A stretch of DNA of 64,000 bases from Kondoa malvinella (Eukaryota; Basidiomycota; Agaricostilbomycetes; Agaricostilbales; Kondoaceae): the NCBI GenBank assembly GCA_039545315.1, contig BCIM01000001.1, positions 2,699,783 through 2,763,782 of the forward strand, given 5' to 3'. The translations under genes were made by a program, and so were the position numbers. Positions 865-19,587 of the stretch are shown piece after piece (within the stretch, counting starts at the first letter, position 1; each line of letters opens with the position of its first letter). A model generated the notes under the pieces. That model was given only the letters and a program-made list of their open reading frames with translations, did not search any database and was not told the DNA's origin.

Positions 865-2620
865 TCACTTCTCTACAATCTTGGGAACGCCCGCCTCTGC
901 TTGCTTCTTAGCTTGTAAAGCAGTCAAAGCAGCTGTAGCATTGTATCAGCTTTGTATATCAGCTCAGGTGATACGACTCACCACCAACACCGGACCCATC
1001 CTTGGCTAAACCAATCTGAACCCTCTGTTCCGCTTCCTTACCTATCACTTCTCTCAAAGCCGTTCTTACACGCTCATCAAAACGAGGGTAGAATTCAACC
1101 AAGCTACCATCCACGCCAACAGGGAAATCTTCTTTAGACTTGTCCATGTTCATTTGTAGGAAAACAGCAGCGATAGCCGCAGCGGAAAACCGAGCACCTC
1201 TAGTCCCTACGATTTCAGAACATCTTTGAACGAGGTAACAGTCCGAATCGGAAATGTATTTATCTTCTATGCCTAGTTGGGATTGGACGATTTGTCTTAG
1301 ACGTCCAACATCTGAAGAAGTGGAAGATTTTGATGTATCGGGTGAGACGGCTGAAGATGGTGCAGAGGGAGAACCGGCTTCTAGGTCAGACATGACGGCT
1401 GTGTCTAGACCGTAGTGCGTATTGAGGACGGAAGAGTGACGACCTTGAAAGATGAGGTTGGCATCGACGAGGGTGAGGAGAATGTTGCGCAAGACTTCGC
1501 CAAGGTACATGCCGCTGATCATTTTCTCGAATGCTTGTTTCCGCGGGTTGATTGATTCCCTGTCTAGCTTGTTGTCGAAAGGCGTGATTCGTAGGACTTT
1601 GCGTTCGTTGTCGAAGGCTCCCCATTCCTGTTGGACGATCAATGTCATAATACAACAAAGATGGAAGCACTCACAGTGTTGATGATCATGTACTGTTCCG
1701 GAGTAGCCTTCTCCAGCGTCTTGACATTGCTGTACTTTTCCAGATACGCCGCATTGGTTCCCGTTCCAAAAATGGCTCCCAGAACAGCACCACCAGATTG
1801 ATACGCCCTGCTCAACATTGTCCCCACAGTATCGTTGACCAGCGCTGAGCATTTCACGGGTAATTGACGCTTGTCCAAAGCCGTCTGCAACAGCTGCACT
1901 ACATCTTTTCCCTTTGCGTTTCTCGCTTCAAAGCCTTTTGTCCAAGTAATCAAAGTACCGGAATCGAGCGCAGTCTGTTTAACGGGGAAACTAAATGTGA
2001 AGCCAAGAAAGAGCGCTTCAGCTGGTGGAGCAGCCTTGAGGTCAAACAGGTGGGTAGAGAGGAAATGTTCGACTGATTGAGCAATGTAGTCGAACAGAGC
2101 CGAAGCTTCGCCGGTCTTGAGTTCATCAGATACTTTGTACTTTTCTTGCTTGAGCGTAAAGTTTTGCTTGCCGTCCAGGTCTACACTTGCTACTCGAAGA
2201 TTCGTTCCGCCCTGTGAGTACAACCGTCGATGAACACAAGCTTGTATGATCAAGATGCTGAATCTCACCAAATCCAAGGCCAAGAATGTGCCCTGCTCAG
2301 TGCCGTCCGGTACGTTGTGGATGAAAGTAGGTCTGTCATGCCCCGCAAAACGGTAAGCTGTCACGTGCAAAAGAGCCGCTCTAACAGCAAGAGGCAACTC
2401 ACATCATAGGCAAGAACGTATCAGCTTCATCTGCGGTCTTTGCGACTCTTGACAAGCCTTCGTTGAACTCCCATAAGAACTGCTTGACGACTTTGTTTAG
2501 GTCTGAAGCGTTCAAGTCAAAGTCTTGTTCGAGCTTTGTTAGGAATTGCAGCTGTTTAGGAGAGAGGTCCGAATCGTTGAAGGGTGTCAGGTAGGCAGGG
2601 TGCTGGGAAGAGCTCGACAT
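865..2620 (-). CDS. GLK1: Glucokinase / hexokinase family
   Basis: Phosphorylates glucose to glucose-6-phosphate with ATP in the cytosol, the entry step of glycolysis. Five exons: 2403-2620, 2269-2332, 1675-2211, 982-1627 and 865-932; 1533 nt in total, 510 residues, no frame break. Visible motifs in order: VPDGTEQGTFLALDLGGTN (phosphate-1 loop, near residues 80-98), LGFTFSFPVKQ followed by TWTKGF (sugar-binding region, near 165-185), GAIFGTGTNAAYLE (phosphate-2/adenosine region, near 245) and NTEWGAFDNE (catalytic and sugar contact). The C-terminal KDGSGVGAALTALQAK is typical of the family. Length and the Glk-like FSFPVKQ fit glucokinase better than hexokinase II, but sequence alone does not settle substrate preference. 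The start ATG at 2618-2620 gives MSSSSQHPAYL, a normal fungal N-terminus. Confidence 0.95.
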
Positions 2621-3324: not shown

Positions 3325-5131
3325 ATGGAGATTTCCCGTTTAGACGCCATCACTGCGCTTGCGCTTATCAGAAGTAGCACGATTTCAGTAACTCAATACG
3401 CTCAGGTGAGATTGCTCCTGTTCTCAGTATTGAAATGAGTCTGACAAGTACTAGATTCTGCTGAATCGCATCGAAGAGCGAGATCCAATCATTCACGCTT
3501 GGGCATACTTGGACAGGGACACTGTTTTGCGTCAAGCCGCTGCTTTGGATCGTCTGCCTCGGCATGAAAGGGGCCCTTTGCACGGGCTACCTATTGGTGG
3601 TGAGTTGATTGATCCATTGCTCAGCGTGATCTGACCTCGGCTTGCATAGTCAAGGACGTCATACTCACGAGAGATCAGCCAACTCACTACCATAGTCCTA
3701 TGTGAGCACGATTGTATTAGCGCTTTCTTAGCTAAAGGACGGTAGATATGCCGACGAAGGCTGCTCAAATGTTGATGCAGCGTGCGTCAAGATCTTAAGA
3801 TCAGCTGGCGCTCTGATTATGGGTGAGCAAGTCTAGATACCAGCATCGAAGCTGCTGACTCTTTTTCAGGAAAGACTGAAACAACAGAATTCGCAGCTTC
3901 CGCGATTGGCGGACCTTGCGTCAATCGTAAGACTGTTGTCTTTTGACTTTCTCTTTGATGTCTAGACGCCTCGATAATAGCTCACGATATCAGCCGGACT
4001 CCAGGTGGCTCCTCCAGCGGGAGTGCAGCAGCTGTAGCTGATTTTCAAGTGCCTGTAGTGAGTACATCGGAACTGTAAAGAGTCCAGCTCATCTTTCATA
4101 GGCAATCGGCACACAAACAGGTATAGTGCAATACTGTCTTTCGAAAGTCAGAGTAAATGAGCAAGGCTGCAGGAGGGTCCACAATCCGCCCTGCCTCGTA
4201 TTCAGGCGTCTTTGGCTTCAAACCAACTTGGAACGTCATCTCCCAGGAGGGCGCGAAACCGTTCGCCGTTTCATGCGACACTATCGGATTGTTTTCCAGG
4301 AATGTTGAAGACCTCAGATTAATTTCTCGCGTTCTGCGCTTGGAAGACGATCATCCTGTCTCTCACGAGCCCTGTACCATCTGTGGGGCCAAATTCGCCT
4401 TCTGTCAAGGACCTAATTGGTCAAAAGCTGGACGAGGCACGATCAAGGCAATGCAACGCGCTCGGCAATTGCTCACATCTGCTGGCGCTGTAGTCCAGGA
4501 TCTGCAGTTGCCTCCAGCTTTTGGTTCAGCTTCCGAATGGTGCTTGCAGGTAACTCAAGGGGAGGGAAGAGCATCCTTCACTCCTGAATACTACATGGAC
4601 AAGTCTTTACTCGATCCCGATATTCGCGAGCATGTCGAAAGACCTGTCACAGAGTTATCTCGCAAGGATCTTATGGCAGCTGAAGACGGAATCGCAAGTT
4701 TACGCCCGCAATTTGACTCTTTTGCTTCGGCATATTGCGCGATCATTACACCTAGCGCAGTTGACGAAGCCGAACTCGGCCTAGGCTACACCGGGAGTGC
4801 TGTCTTTAGTGCGTACCTTTGAGTGAATAAGATGCGGCATGTCCTGACCAGACCTGAGTAGATGCTATGTGGACAATCCTTCATGTCCCCGTGATCAATA
4901 TTCCAGGTCTGTGCTCGTCTCTACTCAAGCGCGATCATTCATTCAAGATATGTCAGGTCTCAAAGGCAATTCAGGCCTTCCAGTCGGTATATCCTTGATT
5001 GCTGCTAGACATCGTGAGTTCGCATTGCTTGAAGGAACGAATCAATCAAATCATCTTTGGCAGACGATCTTCACCTGCTACACGTAGCGGAAGCTGTTGC
5101 GAAAGTATTTGCGCAAGCGGGAGAAGCTTAA
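3325..5131 (+). CDS. Amidase (amidase-signature family)
   Basis: Hydrolyses a carboxamide to acid plus ammonia; the substrate is not readable from sequence. Eleven exons (3325-3405, 3455-3599, 3650-3701, 3746-3822, 3870-3926, 3981-4057, 4102-4120, 4173-4808, 4862-4906, 4957-5013, 5064-5131) sum to 1314 nt, 437 residues, with no break. The Ser-cisSer-Lys triad is complete: Lys77 in GVKDV, the Ser cluster at 148-152 in TPGGSSSGSAAA, and nucleophile Ser172 in GTQTGGSTIRP. HVPVINIPG and GNSGLPVGISLI near the C-terminus are typical of fungal amidases. It is shorter than, and unlike, the acetamidase-type enzyme at 41551. The start ATG directly precedes the conserved LDAITALALIRS helix. It is enclosed by two copies of a repeat (2841-2967 and 5522-5618), so it may sit in a rearranged segment. 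Confidence 0.9.
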
Positions 5132-5240: not shown

Positions 5241-5523
5241 CAGTCTCGGAGTGAATTGGGGAACAAGCCTCTTAGGCTTTGTTTCGCTTGCTCTCGCTGC
5301 TGTTCCGATCCTCTTCTACTTCTTTGGCAAACGACTGCGAGCTCGATCAAAGATGGCATCGGGTCATAGCAGGCGGACAATAGACAGTAGCAATCCGACA
5401 TAGAGTGTAAATGTACAGTTGCATGGCCTAGAAACCTTTCACCTTGATGATCATGCTCTTCTCTTCCAGCCACATGTCGAGCGACTTGGGCCACCTTCGC
5501 GACCAATGCCCGATGTCTTGAAG
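5241..5523 (+). pseudogene. Truncated copy of the MFS/ALDH 3' boundary
   Basis: This stretch is almost identical to 8134-8415. It copies the last coding bases of the MFS transporter (LLGFVSLALAAVPILFYFFG), its stop, the 45-bp spacer and the reverse-strand 3' end of the aldehyde dehydrogenase. I count about ten substitutions plus two 1-nt indels. One indel (GGGTCATAGC versus GGGCATAGC) shifts the frame of the MFS fragment just before its stop. Neither fragment has the rest of its gene, so both are non-functional. It appears to be a recent segmental copy that was cut off sharply at 5241. Confidence 0.9.
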
Positions 5524-6102: not shown

Positions 6103-8275
6103 ATGCATCGAGCAGCAAGTACTCGACTTTCACCTCTGCATGATGCGGAATCCGAAGACACTTTACACGATGCCTCTTCTGATCCAGAAAAGAAAAAGAT
6201 TGTCGAGTATCCGGATGATCTAGTCACGTTTGATGGGGATGATGATCCTGCGAATCCAATGAATTGGCCAACGAGCAAGAAATTTCGGGTGGTGAGTTTT
6301 CTATTGCTATACAATGGACTCATCAGATAGTCAGTAGACGATGATCCTTGGTTTCCTAACGATGGGCGCTACGTTGGCATCCTCAATCTTCTCTGCAGCT
6401 TTCGAGCCGCTGACGGTAGAGTTCGACATCGGGATACAAGGTCTGCCTATCCCCTGTATACAGGCTTTATGTTTGCTAATCTCCCCGACTACAGTTGCTA
6501 CACTTGGGATAGCGCTCTTCATTCTAGCTTTCGCTGTTGGACCAATAGTCTTGTGAGTTCTCGCTCTAGCGAAAGCGGGCTGGCTGTTCCAACGCTGACG
6601 TCGAACCAGCGCCCCAGTAAGTGAATGGCTCGGGCGTAGGGTGAGCGTCCTTCCGGCCTACTTCGTCTTTATCTGCTTCACGTAGGCATTTCTCTATAAA
6701 TTCTATGAGATCCGTTTCAACCGCCGCTTTAGGGCCGCAACTGCTGCGTCCAAGGAAATTCAAAGTATCATGATCACTCGCTTCTTCGCTGGTGTTTTTG
6801 CTTCCGCGCCAGTGTCCAATGTCGGTGAGCTAAGCATAAGTCAACTCTCCATGGGAAAGCTGAAAATTGTCTAGGCGGCGCGCTGGCAGACATGTGGGAC
6901 GCAAAGACTAGGGGTATAGCAGTCGTCTTCTATTCCTTTGCTGTTGTTGGTGGACCGACATTGGGTAGGAAACCACTTTGTGCATTTTCGTTTTAGCTGA
7001 GTATATGTACAGGACCGCTCATCGGCAACGCTGCAGCAACCAGCTACCTCGGTTGGAGATGGACACTCTACCTATCTATCATCTTCTCATCGACTGTCTT
7101 TATCCTCACTATCCTATTCGTGCCCGAAAGTAAGGCTTGATACTGTTGAAGTCATTAGCTCTGACACCTGTACTAGCATACGCTCCAGTACTTCTCACAG
7201 AGAAGGCTCGTCGACTACGACTTGAAACACGCAATTACGCTCTGCACAGTAGACAAGAAACGCAAGATCTTGCGTTAAAGGTCTTTATCCAGAAGACTGT
7301 CTATCGTCCTCTGTATATGTTGACCCACGAACCTATCCTCGCTCTTGTTTGTCTTTACAACGCCTTTGCATACTCTGTTCTGTGAGTCACCCGTCTCTGA
7401 TAGCTTGGACTAGCTAAACATTTGACAGGTATGGGCTTTTCGAAATTTTTCCGATCGCTTTTGCACAAGGAAGAGGATGGAGTCCAGTAGTCGCTTCTTT
7501 ACCTTTCCTAGCTGTTTTAGTCGGTGTCTTTATCGGTAAGTTAATCACATGCCTTCAATACCTTGCTAACATGAAATTTCAGCTGGTGGTATCAACATCT
7601 TGTACTCCACAAAGGTCTATGCACCAGCGATGACGCGTAATAAAGGCAAGATAGAAGCAGAGTTGAGACTTCCTCCGATGATTTTAGGCGGTTGTATCTT
7701 TCCAAGTTGGTCTTCATCTTTCCAATTGAGCGGTAGCTCATGTTTATGCAAATCAAGTTGGCTTTTTTTGGTTTGGCTGGACACAAGAGTCACATTGGAT
7801 CAATCAAGTGCTGGCTGGTGGGCTGATAGGCTGCAGTTTTTTGTTAATTTTTCAAACGGGCATCAAGTAAGTTGACTAGACTTCTCTCACAACAATTGAG
7901 CTGACTGCATGTGCTCAGCTACCTTATTGAGTGAGTCAAACCAACTGTATGCGCGTATGACTGTTAACAACCCTATTTCAGCGTCTATACCGTCTATGCC
8001 GCAAGTGCACTTTCAGCAAACGTGCGTATAGCACCTATTCAAGTCAGAGCCCAGCTAATCCCGACAAACACTAGACCTTCATGCGTTCGCTCTTCGCTGC
8101 GGGCATCTCGATGGCAATTCGACCAATGTACAACAGTCTCGGAGTGGATTGGGGAACAAGCCTCTTAGGCTTTGTTTCGCTTGCTCTCGCTGCTGTTCCG
8201 ATCCTCTTCTACTTCTTTGGCAAGCGACTGCGAGCTCGATCAAAGATGGCATCGGGCATAGCAGGCGGACAATAG
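6103..8275 (+). CDS. MFS transporter, DHA1 multidrug/polyamine family
   Basis: Proton-coupled exporter of the plasma membrane. Fourteen exons sum to 1518 nt, 505 residues, without a frame break; one exon is only 12 nt (7919-7930). The cytosolic N-terminus contains DPANPMNWPTSKK, a hallmark of fungal DHA1 carriers. The loop 2-3 motif is APVSEWLGRR, followed by RFFAGVFASAPVSNVG (helix 4) and the loop GGALADMWDAKTRG. GPLIGNAAATSYLGWRWTLY is the helix 5/6 motif, and PESTYAPVLLTEKARRLR opens the central loop. FMRSLFAAGISMAIRPMYNS and LGFVSLALAAVPILFYFFGK are the last helices. Substrate is unknown. It converges on the aldehyde dehydrogenase with 44 bp between stops. Its last 140 bp were copied to 5241-5380. 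Confidence 0.93.
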
Positions 8276-8319
8276 ACAGTAGTAATCCGACATAGAATGT
8301 AAATGTACAGTTGCATGGC

Positions 8320-10400
8320 CTAGAAACCTTTCACCTTGATGATCATGCTCTTCTCTTCCAGCCACATGTCGAGCGACTTGGGGCCACCTTCGCGACCGAC
8401 GCCCGACGTCTTGAAACCACCGCTAGAAAGGACATCAGAAACGCTTCGATGCGCACTCGGACTACTCACAACACCATATCGGTAGCGCCAGAAGGAGAAG
8501 TACAGTTGACGCCTGTGCTTTATCAGCACACTGTCGTTCGAGAAGAGAGGCGACATACCAACTGTGCCAGCTTCTAGACGCTTCGCGACCCGAAGAGCTC
8601 GATCGATGTTCTGACTGTATACGGCGGCATATAGGCCATACCTACGCAGATCATGTCGTCAATTGAGAACCCTAGTGAGGATTTGTCAAGCTTACTCGGT
8701 GTCATTTGCTTTTGCGATAACATCCTCCTCGTCAGAGAATTTGTGCAGCAGGACAACAGGGCCTATTCAGCCTCGATCAGACCGAGTTAAGCATTGCACA
8801 GCTATTGACCTACCGAAGACTTCTTCCTTGTTGATTCTGGAGCTTTCGGAAACGTCGGTGAAAATGGTTGGGTTGAAGAAGCTGTAAACCAAATCAGCCA
8901 GCATAATGAATGACTGAGCAACTACATACTTGTCTCCTGCATCGCTTTTACCACCTCCCAGGATAGCCTTACCCTCCTTGTTGCCAATGTCCAGATACGA
9001 TTGAACAGCTTTTGCCTGAATGTCGTCCGCCTGAGGGCCCATAGTCGTTTCTTTGTTCAAAGGATCACCATGTTTAAACTGGCCGAAAGCGGCAGAGAAC
9101 CTCTTGGCGAACTCATCGTAAATCTTTTCGTGTACATAAATTCGGCTGTTGGCCATGCAGACTGCACAGAGTTCTGAATAAGAGCCTGTAATCGATGCTT
9201 TCCCGACATACTCTGACCACTATTCCATTGGAGGGAGAAGGTACAAGCTGGCACAGCTTCATCTAGATCAGCGTCGTCGAAGATTACGGTTGGACTGGAG
9301 CATCGATCGTCAATTTTGAGCTCTAGAGCACACAAGAGATGACAAACCTCTTTCCGCCAAGCTCTAGAGTGACAGCCTTCAAGTTGCTTTGAGCAGCAGC
9401 GGTCATGATATGGCGTCCAGTCCGTGTAGATCCGGTGAAAGAGATTTTGCGAATACGCATATGTTCAGAGACGAGCTTGCCAGTCTCGCCTAGACCGTTG
9501 AGGCACTGGACGATACCGGCTGGAATACCTGCTTGGGTAGCTAGATCCGCAATGTAGGTGCCGCTGAGAGGTGATTTTTCCCTATACCAAATTGAGCACC
9601 AGTTGGATCCAGTACAAGTGCAGCTCACGAGCTCTTGATAATGATGGCATTACCGGCCGCAATAGAGGGTGCAACCTTGAAGCACATCATAATGATAGGC
9701 ACGCTGCTTGATGCATTAGCGTCCCAGCATTTTGAGCAAACATTGAGCTCACTTCCTGCAAGCAACAATCAGTCGATTCCTTCGTATAGCGGCATAGACT
9801 TACCAGGGAATGACTCCTGCTGTGACACCGTATGGCTGCTTGACGGTCATGTTCATGAAGCCAGGCGAAAGCAAAGAGCTGTGTCCGTGAACATTCGCTC
9901 CCAATCCAGCGGCATATTCGATAGCACCAGCAGCAATCATGCTGTCGTAGTTGGTGCTGACTGGTCGACCCATAGCTAGAGCATCAAGTTCTCCAAGAGC
10001 ACCAGCATGTTCACGCATAAGCGCAGCGAATTTCATGAGTTTTTCTCCGCGCTGGTGAGCAGCTAACGCGGCCCATGCTGGTTGCGCCTTCTCAGCGGCG
10101 ACCACAGCTGCTTCTACGTCCTAATTGTGCTGCTTCAGCCAGTGACAAAATTGAGGAGAGCCAAACCCACCGCTTCGGTGGCACATTGAATCTCTCCGAC
10201 TTTGTCTCCATTTGCAGGGTTCTTGAGGATAAAGGTCTTGCCTAAGTAACGCTCAGCTGTTTGACAGGCCTCCGGCAGCATACTGCTCACCACCTTTGCA
10301 GTCAACGAACTATCGTTCACTATTAGCTTGACACGCGCATGAAGCATGCAACACTCACTTGACCGTCGATGTATGATCTGGGCTCTACTTTAGGTGCCAT
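8320..10400 (-). CDS. NAD(P)-dependent aldehyde dehydrogenase
   Basis: Oxidises an aldehyde to its carboxylate. Fourteen exons, including one of 3 nt (GAA, 9753-9755), sum to 1440 nt, 479 residues, with no break. The catalytic set is complete: Asn151 in IPWNVP, Glu249 in LELGGKS and Cys283 in SGQICMANSR. Other family motifs are SFTGSTRTGR (Rossmann), EEVFGPVVLLHKF and the C-terminal FGGFKTSGVGREGG. The N-terminus MAPKVEPRSYIDGQFV starts close to the catalytic domain, and no targeting peptide is evident. The codons for Trp150 and Asn151 are built across the microexon (TG|GAA|C). Class resembles the broad betaine/retinal-type ALDHs; substrate unknown. The end of the gene was copied to about 5420-5523. 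Confidence 0.93.
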
Positions 10401-15016: not shown

Positions 15017-18000
15017 ATGAAGACGCGGAATACATCGCCAATTCAGCGCAGCAAGCTGTCCCTTTTGCCGAGAATAGCAGCTCGAAATCCTGTTGAGACG
15101 ATTGTAATGCAACTTGCTCAATCGAGCTATACCGCCTGTCTGACCTGCTCTCTCACTAGGTTATTGGCTGTATACTCGTCACCCTAGTCTACTTTCAATT
15201 GTTGCAAGCAGTCAAAGATTCAGACTTTCTCAATGCGGTCGCCGAACCGAGCTCGAGCCTTTCGTCATCGATCAGGAATCGAGTATCAACAGTGAGGAAG
15301 CCGAGTGGAAAGGATAGATGGATCAGTGTGAACGCAGGCAGCAGTGGTGAGACGCGAGAAATCTACCTTCAGCAAGTCTTGCTTTCGCTCGATGCACGAC
15401 ATAATGCACCGACCTCGTCCAAATCACTTCAGAACTCGCCCGAATTGCTCTCGGATGTACAAATCGTCGATGCAGCCTTGCGACACCACTTTGAATTGTC
15501 CGACACCAAGCTTCTGTTCGACCCTGATCTATGCTATCAATCACCCGACACCGCTTCTTGCGTGCATTTCACCTTTGATACCTCGCTACATGCCTCGTCG
15601 TACTTTCCTTCGTCACGCAAGACTGTCATCACCTATGCTTTTTCATCAGAAGCGAGAAACGCAGCGGAAGAATGGGTCGAAGGCTTACAAGATCCGCTGC
15701 TACTCGCAAAGCTGAACAGCTACATCTCTTCCCAAACCAACTCAAATGTGGAACTACGTCTACCTGCCTCCTCTCGAGCCCCGACTACCCAACTACCCGA
15801 CAGCGCTGGCAACCTTTCTACTTTGCCAAGAACACAGTCTGGCCTTGGGCTCAGTCTACCTTTGTCGCCTAAAGCTGGGTATTCTTCGTACAGAGAAGGC
15901 AGTGCAAGAGATTTGAGCGGGATAGCTTGGTTCATCTATGCGGCCAAGACTTTCGTGTTGCGATTTTGGACTCTGGCAAAGGTCAGGATTGGATCGAAGA
16001 TGCTGACTGGCTGCTCACTCGAAATTCCTTCGCTGACAGAAAGCCGACTCGGCTGATATTGCGGTCATGCTATGCGGCTACGTTTTCATGCATGGCACTT
16101 TCGTCAAGCTGTTCTTCAATATGAGACAGCTGGGAAGCAAATTCTGGCTAGGTGCGTCGGGCAAGCGATGTATCAGTGTTCCAGCTGATGTCGCCGTTTC
16201 CTCGTCGTACAGCCTGTTCCGTTCTAGTCTCCTCCACTTTCGGCTTCCTTTTCGCTCTCTTGACAGCTTACCTACTGCATATTCCCGTCAGCCCAGTCAC
16301 TCTATCCGAAGCTCTACCATTTCTTGTCCTCATTGTTGGCTTTGACAAACCTTTCGTCCTCGCGAGAGCAGTCTTCAAGAACCCATCCGCGACTCGACCT
16401 GTTTCTCGACCCGATTTATCCGTCTTTGCTCGACCTGATTCACCACAAGATCGACGGACCAACTCTTCCTGGGGCGATGAGGCGATACAACAAGCTACCT
16501 TGCGCGAGAGAACAGCCATGCGTCCAGCAGGCGAGATTGCCATTCACGCAGTCAACAAGCACGGCTATCAATTGATAAAAGAGTATGCGGTCGAAATTGG
16601 CGTGCTTCTTGTTGGTGCTTGCAGCGGAATTAGCGGCTTGAAAGAGTTCTGCCAGTTGGGAGCGTTGATCTTGGCTTTCGATTGCGCTTTCTTGTTTGGC
16701 TTCTACATCTCAATCTTGACTATTATGGTTGAGGTGAGTTGTCTAAAGTGGTGTTAAGATCAAATGAAGTACTAAGGCTGTCTGTAGATTCGACGGATCA
16801 AGGTCATGCGCGTGATGCAGCGATCCGATTCGACTGCCGACTTGGCTCGAATTCTCGACGATGGTAGCTCTTCTCCTGTGATGGAATCACCTGACGAGTC
16901 CAGCTTCAGCTACAAGCAGACCCTCGTGAACTTGTTCACTGGTGAGGGAGGTCAAGCGAAGCCCGCATTCAGCACAATGTCTCGCCTGAAGATCTTCTTG
17001 CTTGCTTCCTTCGTCGGCTTGCACGTCCTCAACCTCTGTACCACCCTTTCGCCAAAAGCGGTCGTCTCACGTCAATCTGCTGCTTCCAGTGTGTACAGCT
17101 CAAGGGTCGATATCTCTTCACCTTCGATCCAAGATGCACTCTCTCAGCTTGCTTCCGCTCATGGCATCGAAGCTGATCTGATCGTCCATGTCGCTGCGCC
17201 TGTGCTTCTGCAAATGTTTGTGTCTGGCATTTCAGCGGGAGCGATCAATGGCGATGCCCTTGGATCAGCATCTGAAGAGATTCGACAAACGCCCTTGGCT
17301 GTCTTGGATCGCTTTATGACTTCCTGGACCCGATTCGTTGGCGACCCAGTCATGAGCAAGTGGATCGTCATCATTCTCGCTATCAGTGTTTTCTTGAACG
17401 GTTATCTGCTGAAGGGAATTGCTTTGGGAACTTCAAGAGCAGAGGCAGCTGAATCTGCAGCTCGAATCTTACTCTCTGCTACTGGTCAAATTGCGATGGA
17501 AGAAGAGAAGCCCGGCAAAGTTCTGAGAAGGCACAGCAATACCGATCAGCCGATGCGAGCTCTTCGTCAAGCACACAACAACAAAAGACTACCTGTCGAG
17601 CCTACAATCGAGGAAGATCAACGCGAGAGAAAGCACAGTAGCGGGTCGGAAGGCGAAGCACTCGCCGCCGTCAAACCTCTTGTTCTTGCTATGCCTCGTC
17701 CTCGCCGGCCAACTGAGAGCAAATTCGTCGACGAAATCGATCGGGATTCGGCCTCCTCTAACAGTGGTGACCAACCAGCTCCATCACGCCAAACAGACCA
17801 GACCTTGCGCTCGCTCAGACAGAAACCATCTATTGAAGTCACTACCCCTTCTGCTGCCTCTGAATACTCTTCTGTCGTTGGAAGCGAGACACCTGCTACT
17901 ACCGTTGAAGAGGGGTCTGAAGATAGCGCCAACACACCTCGAAAGCCTCGCGGTCTAGAAGAATGTATCGAGGTCTTTGCCGGCGGATCTGGCGCTACTC

Positions 18001-19587
18001 TACTTTCCGACGAAGAGATCATCCTTCTGGTACAAAAGGGTAAGATTGCGGCGTACGCTTTGGAAAAGCTGCTCAAAGAGCATCAACGGGCTGTTCGCAT
18101 TCGTCGCGCTTTAATCTGTAAGTGAGGTGCCCTCTCAAATAGCCACGAGCTGAGTGCCATTACAGCTCGTGCTTCCTCCACCAAGACTCTGGAATCATCT
18201 CTGCTACCTTTTATGCACTACGATTATGCCAAAGTCATGGGTCAATGCTGCGAGAATGTCGTTGGCTACACCCCTATTCCTGTCGGCGTTGCCGGTCCAC
18301 TTCGTATCGATGGTGTTGCTCTACCTATCCCAATGGCAACTACCGAAGGTGCTTTAGTAGCTTCGACATCCAGAGGTTGCAAGGCGTTGAACGCTGGCGG
18401 AGGTGTGACCACTGTGCTGCACAAGGACGCCATGACTCGAGGACCTGCTCTCGACTTCCCCTCCGTCACTGCAGCCGCCGCAGCGAAGGGATGGGTCGAC
18501 TCAGAGGAAGGCTCAGACATCATGAAAGCTGCATTCAACTCCACAACTCGCTTTGGTCGTCTGATCTCCTTGAAGACTGCGATGGCTGGACGAACCCTCT
18601 TTGTTCGCTTTGCATGCCAGACTGGGGACGCTATGGGCATGAACATGATTTCAAAAGGATGTGAAAGGGCGCTAGAAGTTATGGGCGACCACTTTCCAGA
18701 AATGTCTGTGACTTCGCTTTCCGGCAATTACTGCACAGACAAGAAGCCAGCTGCCATCAACTGGATCGAAGGTCGAGGCAAGAGCGTTGTTGCCGAAGGC
18801 GTGATTCCTGGGGCAATTGTTAAGAGCATTCTAAAGACGACTGTTGCCGACATTGTCAAGCTGAATATCACCAAGAACCTGATCGGATCTTCGATGGCCG
18901 GCAGTATCGGAGGCAACAATGCCCACGCCAGCAATATTCTTACTGCTATCTACCTTGCGACCGGTCAAGACCCAGCTCAAAACGTAGAGAGCTCCAACTG
19001 TATGACTTTGATGGAAGCGTGCGTCTGAATACTTGCCTTCTACGCAGGCTTACCTTATCAATTGACAGTGTCAACGGAGGAGAAGACCTTCTCATCACCT
19101 GCTCTATGCCTAGCATCGAAGTCGGAACGATCGGTGGAGGCACCATCCTAGACCCACAACAAGCGATGCTCGACATGCTAGGCGTCCGCGGGCCTCACTC
19201 GACTAGCCCTGGAGAAAATTCTCGACGTCTAGCACGAATCATCTGCGCATCAGTCATGGCAGGCGAACTTTCGTTGATGAGCGCACTAGCAGCCGGTCAT
19301 CTTGTCAAGGTCAGTCGGTTCATCCTAGAATCGACAATGTGCTGATAGGCTCTCGTTGTTAGTCTCACATGGCCCACAACCGATCTCAAGCAGCAACACC
19401 CACTGCCCCTCAAACCATCCAAGCCACTGGTGGTCACACTTAGTGAGTCGCAAACTAACATTTGATGTCTATCGCTAAACCGACATGTAGTCTCACTCCA
19501 GCACCCACACGTCCTTCGACACCACATCAAGGTCAAGGCTCTTTCAGACAGCAACCCTCGGGCACCTTCACCCCTCTGCGGCCGTAA
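15017..19587 (+). CDS. HMG1: HMG-CoA reductase
   Basis: Reduces HMG-CoA to mevalonate with NADPH, the controlling step of sterol and isoprenoid synthesis; an ER membrane protein with a cytosolic catalytic domain. Nine exons sum to 4143 nt, 1380 residues. The N-terminus [10 protein letters not shown] precedes [20 protein letters not shown], the first membrane helix. The sterol-sensing region is encoded at 16040-16733 ([19 protein letters not shown], then [15 protein letters not shown]). A Ser-rich linker follows, then the catalytic domain from about residue 950: [48 protein letters not shown], the lysine in [24 protein letters not shown], and the histidine in HLVKSHMAHN. A Thr/Pro/Gln-rich tail of about 60 residues is an extension. 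The sterol-sensing segment suggests sterol-regulated stability, which is inference from the family. Confidence 0.95.

What the first reader, a model, noticed from the sequence alone, without database searches (positions are those of the whole stretch)
9704..9803. A 3-nt microexon supplies catalytic-site codons of an aldehyde dehydrogenase
On the reverse strand, exon 4 ends ...CCCTG and exon 5 begins CGTGCC. Direct joining gives IPCVP and loses the near-invariant Trp-Asn. Between them lie two complete introns of 48 nt (9756-9803, GTAAGT...GCAG) and 49 nt (9704-9752, GTGAGC...GCTAAT...GCAG) separated by exactly GAA (9753-9755). Including it gives TGG AAC, hence IPWNVP, restoring the oxyanion-hole Asn151 that every active ALDH needs. 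Three-nt exons are among the shortest possible and cannot be defined by normal exon recognition, so spliceosome recognition or recursive splicing here is of interest. Both readings keep frame, so skipping would produce a full-length but probably inactive enzyme, a possible switch.
Basis: partly seen in the sequence, partly recalled or inferred. Interest (0 to 1): 0.78.

Follow-up and report, generated by a model that had tools for sequence, protein, structure and literature searches.

The report
Three-base exon in aldehyde dehydrogenase gene
A fungal aldehyde dehydrogenase gene appears to carry an exon of only three bases that supplies part of its catalytic centre; this is probably a real but extreme case of the very small exons already known from fungi, plants and animals.

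Summary
The window is from a basidiomycete-like genome (19.09 Mb, 20 contigs). The gene (10400-8320, minus) encodes a 479-aa aldehyde dehydrogenase through 14 exons. Two ordinary introns (9803-9756, 48 nt; 9752-9704, 49 nt) flank GAA (9755-9753). Including GAA gives P-W-N-V-P. In a spliced alignment that allows exons of any length, 107 of the 120 best-listed homologues choose the 3-nt exon and 13 choose another splice. All 120 keep the Asn. A 79%-identical paralogue in the same genome encodes IPWNVPII around a single intron between TGG and AAT. Best explanation: a constitutive 3-nt microexon joined by two successive intron-defined splicing events. The 'switch by skipping' idea has no support: skipping needs a 100-nt intron where 79 of 82 modelled introns measure 43-65 nt, and retaining either intron gives an immediate stop codon. 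Such microexons are known (3 nt in animals, 1 nt in plants, 5-6 nt in basidiomycete yeasts), so this is an extreme member of a known kind. No RNA from this species was available. The same Trp-Asn codons carry introns at four positions among this genome's ALDH genes.

The parts
8320..10400 (-). aldehyde dehydrogenase gene (14 exons, 13 introns of 46-54 nt, 479 aa)
   Evidence: spliced model, PF00171 E 3.4e-152; same 13 introns recovered by spliced alignment with P0001, P0004 and P0007
9804..10120 (-). exon 4, ends ...ATT CCC TG (first two bases of the Trp150 codon)
9756..9803 (-). intron 4, 48 nt, phase 2; donor GTAAGT (97th percentile), acceptor TTGCAG (93rd percentile), branch-like CTGAT at 9772-9768
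9753..9755 (-). 3-nt microexon GAA (exon 5): last base of TGG (Trp150) and first two of AAC (Asn151)
   Evidence: chosen by 107 of 120 homologues
9704..9752 (-). intron 5, 49 nt, phase 2; donor GTGAGC (74th percentile), acceptor AAGCAG (17th percentile), branch-like CTAAT at 9719-9715
9629..9703 (-). exon 6, begins C GTG CCT
9707..9708 (-). alternative tandem acceptor AG, 3 nt upstream; weak (4th percentile); with donor 9803 it gives P-C-S-V-P
10291..10309 (-). 19-nt exon 2 (TTCGTTGACTGCAAAGGTG), a second microexon in the gene; a 19-nt exon 2 is also in the C1 paralogue

Best explanation
GAA at 9755-9753 is a genuine, constitutively included 3-nt exon of an aldehyde dehydrogenase gene. Each flanking intron (48 and 49 nt) has its own complete donor, branch-like site and acceptor and is recognised across itself (intron definition), so exon size hardly matters. 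The two introns must be removed one after the other, since complexes on an acceptor and a donor three bases apart would collide. Intron 4 has the stronger sites and is transcribed first, so it is probably removed first; intron 5 then follows, using GAA as the exonic -3 to -1 part of its donor. Shown here: the sequence anatomy, the homology, the signal strengths and the coding outcomes. Inferred: inclusion in mRNA, the order of removal, and enzyme activity.
For: A spliced aligner that allows any exon length chose both introns with 107 of the 120 best-listed homologues. All 120 have Asn at this place: 108 WN, 12 FN. PF00171 scores 507.7 bits with GAA, 487.3 without it and 493.8 with the 97-nt intron. 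Both introns lie inside the 43-65 nt range of 79 of 82 modelled introns. Both have a CTRAY motif with 13-14 nt from its A to the intron end; 31 of 76 introns have one at 11-16 nt. P0001, 81% identical, is a 479-aa protein from a 1590-bp JGI contig and reads ITPWNVPII; that contig is too short for a gene with this one's introns, so it is probably a transcript. The 79%-identical paralogue L012/L041 encodes VIPWNVPII. Retention of either intron gives an immediate stop.
Against: No RNA from this species was seen. The alignment margin for inclusion is small (0 to 8 score units, median 8, at intron cost 10), and the choice depends on that cost: 19 of 20 sampled homologues choose the microexon at costs 10, 15 and 17, and 0 of 20 at cost 19. 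12 of 120 homologues, exactly the FN ones, preferred one 97-nt intron, and 1 of 120 (P0019) preferred 9803-9752. The intron 5 acceptor is weak (17th percentile). The close paralogue does not have the microexon. P0001 and P0002 show that relatives' proteins keep WN, not that relatives have the 3-nt exon.
Confidence: 0.86

Rival explanations
1. Regulated skipping switch: donor 9803 is sometimes joined to acceptor 9704, dropping GAA and making a 478-aa enzyme with PCVP that lacks the oxyanion-hole Asn.
For: The frame stays open without GAA, and the donor of intron 4 is strong. In Neurospora crassa rtnA a 33-nt exon is skipped in three ESTs and kept in ten, and exon skipping is described for A. 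niger rtnA (PMC6616335, passages).
Against: It needs a 100-nt intron, where 79 of 82 modelled ALDH introns are 43-65 nt. The acceptor is weak (17th percentile). No isoform data were available and no regulatory element was looked for. Splicing errors in short-intron fungi are expected to give intron retention (general knowledge; Romfo 2000 on S. pombe cgs2 recalled, not seen; one search found no paper).
Confidence: 0.06
2. A single 97-nt intron (9803-9707) using the upstream AG of a CAAGCAG tandem acceptor; the protein has P-C-S-V-P and keeps its length.
For: Chosen by 12 of 120 homologues in the spliced alignment; needs one intron instead of two, and when the intron cost is raised to 19, 0 of 20 sampled homologues still choose the microexon.
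Against: Those 12 are exactly the FN homologues, which still keep Asn. The acceptor ranks in the 4th percentile and the intron is longer than 79 of 82 modelled ones. It loses the catalytic Asn and 13.9 bits against PF00171.
Confidence: 0.03
3. The gene has lost Trp-Asn and is a decaying or non-catalytic aldehyde dehydrogenase; the AG-GAA-GT arrangement is chance.
For: A closely related second copy exists (L041), so loss would be tolerable. A copy of the gene's 3' end lies at 5241-5522.
Against: The 13 other exons are open with matching phases. Glu249 and Cys283 are intact. The arrangement arose in 0 of 200,000 resampled stretches with branch motif and GTRAGY.
Confidence: 0.03

Closest known systems
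3-nt microexons of animals (Drosophila homothorax micro-Ex8, Drosophila troponin T, mouse Ncam)
   Same: An internal exon of exactly 3 nt (PMC7392893 passages; PMC8042270 passages).
   Different: The homothorax and troponin T cases are alternatively spliced; here the exon supplies part of two catalytic-site codons and appears constitutive, between 48-49 nt introns.
Microexons in basidiomycete yeast bglA genes (shortest exon 5 bp in Sirobasidium magnum, 6 bp in Rhodotorula minuta) and Phanerochaete P450 genes (shortest exon 6 bp)
   Same: Very small exons between short introns in basidiomycetes; the bglA structures were set by comparison with cDNA (PMC9142197 passages; PMC1184071 passages).
   Different: Shortest there is 5-6 bp; here 3 nt, without cDNA.
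1-nt microexons of plant APC11 and VPS55
   Same: Tiny coding exons missing from reference annotations, confirmed by RNA-seq and RT-PCR there (PMC8831610 passages).
   Different: Plants; 1 nt; conserved across diverse land plants, whereas conservation could not be tested here.
Spliceosomal twin introns (stwintrons)
   Same: Adjacent short fungal intron sequences removed in succession (PMC6616335 passages; abstract starts).
   Different: In stwintrons one intron interrupts a splice element of the other; here both introns are complete and 3 coding bases remain between them.

Membership tests
Aldehyde dehydrogenase superfamily (PF00171) | profile match over the whole domain | tested here: met
   507.7 bits, E 3.4e-152, residues 16-471
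Aldehyde dehydrogenase superfamily (PF00171) | catalytic Cys, general-base Glu and oxyanion Asn present | tested here: met
   Cys283, Glu249 and, only with GAA included, Asn151; roles are general knowledge
Microexon (internal exon up to 30 nt) | internal exon of at most 30 nt between two complete introns | tested here: met
   3 nt, with donor, branch-like site and acceptor on both flanking introns
Microexon (internal exon up to 30 nt) | included in mature mRNA | not testable with these tools
   no RNA of this species; a probable transcript of an 81% relative has the WN codons
Stwintron | internal intron interrupts donor, branch site or acceptor of an external intron | tested here: not met
   both introns have intact elements; removing intron 4 leaves CCCTG-GAA-GTGAGC, which creates no new donor (read from the sequence printed)
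Recursive splice site (zero-length exon) | acceptor AG directly followed by donor GT | tested here: not met
   AG-GAA-GT; the three bases are coding
Introner-type intron | many near-identical intron copies in the genome | tested here: not met
   a 126-bp query over both introns matches only itself in the own genome at E 0.001; the introns were not searched one by one

The most novel reading that the evidence does not exclude
The microexon may be a snapshot of how introns move by a few bases: a second intron is gained a few bases from an existing one, leaving a microexon, and later loss of either intron looks like 'intron sliding'. In this genome's ALDH genes the Trp-Asn codons carry introns at TG|G (window gene and C9 gene L033), TGG|AAT (C1 paralogue L041), AA|C or AA|T (window gene and C4 gene L039) and AAT|TTT (second C9 gene L037). 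The window gene holds two of these sites at once, and L033 has a 7-nt exon ending at the same TG|G site.
Probability: 0.14. Interest if true: 0.62.

Novelty: new member of a known kind. Interest (0 to 1): 0.4.

Why it matters
If cDNA confirms it, this exon would be shorter than the 5-6 bp fungal exons in the passages read here. The gene would be a clean natural substrate for asking how closely an acceptor and the next donor can lie when introns are recognised one by one. It also warns that automatic annotation could merge the two introns and delete the catalytic Asn. The cluster of intron sites in the same codons makes intron gain next to an old intron testable across relatives.

Tried and rejected
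Skipping switch, tandem acceptor, pseudogene, stwintron, recursive splicing and introner readings were considered and set aside.

Viral-contig scan for relatives with DNA: one stretch encoded a relative, but 0 loci were returned. A scan of the window for CTRAY, 4-18 nt, YAG, k nt, GTRAGY found two places at k=3 (the GAA, and TAG at 16274 on the minus strand) and 0 or 1 at each other k from 1 to 12, so it shows no general excess of 3-nt exons.

Cluster of intron sites: 6 of 86 intron units fall in one 7-nt window (max-scan P 0.0037, 20,000 random placements). If the two positions shared between genes are inherited rather than independent, about 4 count, and 4 or more occurred in 8057 of 20,000 placements, so the cluster is then unremarkable. 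Of the 13 ALDH models, 10 were used for this test; L030, L032 and L038 were dropped as weak.

Species: the HMG-CoA reductase search put a tomato-named record first, and my notebook called it a contaminant. One search gave only 49% identity over 365 residues, so I withdraw that note. The best fungal match was Rhodotorula graminis at 82%, so a Pucciniomycotina placement is only a guess.

Literature: 8 searches. I noticed no fungal 3-nt exon in the listings, several of which were capped (20 of 51 papers, 40 of 125), and I read passages of only some papers. Searches (cgs2 + microexon; intron sliding + microexon) returned 0 papers.

Full report
OBSERVATION. Reading the minus strand directly and assembling the gene by script confirm the coordinates in the finding. 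Exon 4 ends CCCTG at 9804; intron 4 is 9803-9756 (48 nt); GAA is 9755-9753; intron 5 is 9752-9704 (49 nt); exon 6 starts CGTGCC at 9703. The gene runs 10400-8320 with 14 exons and 13 introns of 46-54 nt, and encodes 479 aa matching PF00171 over residues 16-471. The window lies in an unnamed 19.09-Mb, 20-contig genome. Among the best 120 of 7994 matches, the ALDH's nearest named relatives are Phenoliferia and other Microbotryomycetes (60-61%) and Kwoniella (57%). HMG-CoA reductase from the window is closest among fungi to Rhodotorula graminis (82%). So it is most likely a basidiomycete; a finer placement is not established.

IS THE 3-NT EXON NEEDED? I wrote a protein-to-DNA spliced aligner that allows GT/GC-AG introns in all phases and exons of any length, and ran it with the 120 listed homologues. 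107 of 120 chose the two introns around GAA. The 12 are exactly the 12 homologues with Phe-Asn instead of Trp-Asn, so their preference comes from a lower score for Trp against Phe, not from lack of Asn: all 120 have Asn here (108 WN, 12 FN). The score margin is modest (0 to 8, median 8, at intron cost 10) and depends on the cost: 19 of 20 sampled homologues choose the microexon at costs 10, 15 and 17, and 0 of 20 at 19. The argument therefore rests on the invariant Asn and the splice signals, not on the aligner alone. Against PF00171 the three products score 507.7 (GAA included), 493.8 (97-nt intron) and 487.3 bits (100-nt intron).

SPLICE SIGNALS. From nine ALDH gene models of the same genome I collected 82 introns; 79 are 43-65 nt and 3 are 106, 132 and 160 nt (in models of the C3 and C16 genes). 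76 (at most 70 nt and starting GT; 3 with GC were left out) were used for leave-one-out site scoring. Intron 4: donor 97th percentile, acceptor 93rd. Intron 5: donor 74th, acceptor 17th. Both have a CTRAY branch-like motif, 13-14 nt from its A to the intron end inclusive; 31 of 76 introns have one at 11-16 nt. A single 97- or 100-nt intron would exceed the 79; the 9707 acceptor ranks in the 4th percentile. A later modelling run of 13 ALDH loci gave a few introns of 67, 87, 92 and 106 nt in the low-scoring models L032 and L038.

CHANCE. In 200,000 first-order Markov resamplings of the 100-nt stretch, a central AG-N3-GT with both halves at least 43 nt occurred in 4.2%, with GAA in 0.054%, and with GAA plus branch motif plus GTRAGY in none.

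RELATIVES. P0001 (81% identical) is a 479-aa protein on a 1590-bp JGI contig and has ITPWNVPII. A gene with this one's introns would not fit, so the contig is probably a transcript, which is an inference. It shows that relatives' proteins carry WN, not their exon structure. In the same genome a paralogue at C1:2435 kb (79% identical; L012/L041) encodes VIPWNVPII with one 46-nt phase-0 intron between TGG and AAT, and shares 9 intron positions with the window gene.

HOW IT MOST LIKELY WORKS. Both introns are short and complete, so each can be recognised across itself. A U1 complex on the intron 5 donor would cover GAA and the intron 4 acceptor, so the two removals should be successive; stronger sites and earlier transcription make intron 4 first the likelier order (inference). 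Work on animals ties microexon inclusion to intron definition helped by PRPF40A/PRP-40 (PMC11463390, a preprint, passages). Mistakes by retention are not silent: keeping intron 4 reads P-W-stop, and keeping intron 5 reads P-W-K-stop. Exon skipping would give an in-frame PCVP protein, but nothing here suggests it happens or is regulated. Against my reading, three ESTs show skipping of a 33-nt exon in Neurospora crassa rtnA (PMC6616335, passages), so skipping cannot be excluded in fungi.

WHAT IS KNOWN. 3-nt exons are documented in animals (homothorax; troponin T and Ncam), 1-nt exons in plants, and, in basidiomycete yeasts, cDNA-based gene structures with shortest exons of 5 and 6 bp, whose authors call microexons a putatively common feature of such genes (PMC9142197, passages). 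Phanerochaete P450 genes have exons down to 6 bp (PMC1184071, passages). A regulated microexon was reported in Trichoderma Xlr2 (PMC11121469, start of abstract and passages). So the kind is known; the length is extreme for a fungus among the passages I saw. The gene is not a stwintron or recursive site, and shows no introner copies (see membership test).

EXTRA FINDING. Small exons are frequent in this genome's ALDH models: 12 internal exons under 30 nt in 13 models (3, 7, 9, 13, 16, 16, 19, 19, 19, 20, 23, 29), some in weak models. The 7-nt exon of L033 (CACCTTG, plus-strand locus 2576-2582) lies at the same catalytic codons and was chosen by 26 of 30 sampled homologues of the 120 (margin 0 to 21, median 13). 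Its downstream intron sits at TG|G, the same place as intron 4. Intron sites in the WN codons are TG|G (window, L033), TGG| (L041), AA| (window, L039) and AAT| (L037). The cluster of 6 of 86 units has max-scan P 0.0037, but is unremarkable if shared positions are inherited (4 or more in 8057 of 20,000). This is the basis of the novel case: gain of an intron beside an old one, with the microexon as intermediate of apparent intron sliding.

LIMITS. No RNA of this species, no DNA of relatives outside this genome, one genome only.

Noticed in passing
window 5241-5522 and 8134-8415: A 282-bp direct repeat at 96.8% identity: most of the ALDH last exon and its 3' flank are copied about 2.9 kb away, leaving an orphan copy of the ALDH C-terminal codons.
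   Followed up: partly
L033 plus-strand 2576-2582 (G000:C9, about 601.4 kb): A 7-nt exon (CACCTTG) in another, distant ALDH gene, ending at the same TG|G site of the catalytic Trp codon; chosen by 26 of 30 sampled homologues. A 16-nt exon follows it.
   Followed up: partly
window 10291-10309: A 19-nt exon 2, also present as a 19-nt exon in the C1 paralogue L041.
   Followed up: no
ALDH loci L033, L037, L039, L041 of the own genome: Introns at four different places within the Trp-Asn codons among the window gene and these paralogues.
   Followed up: partly
window 959-2403 minus; 4157-4822 plus; about 16788-19565 plus: Neighbouring genes: hexokinase (PF00349/PF03727) and amidase (PF01425), and HMG-CoA reductase by homology.
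   Followed up: no
P0019 (Sporobolomyces salmonicolor model): The annotated ALDH carries extra sequence on both sides of GILPWN that may be retained introns, so this motif may be hard to annotate in relatives too.
   Followed up: no
P0121: A tomato-named HMG-CoA reductase record scores highest (739 bits) against the window's HMG-CoA reductase, yet is only 49% identical over 365 residues in my local alignment; the high score is unexplained.
   Followed up: partly
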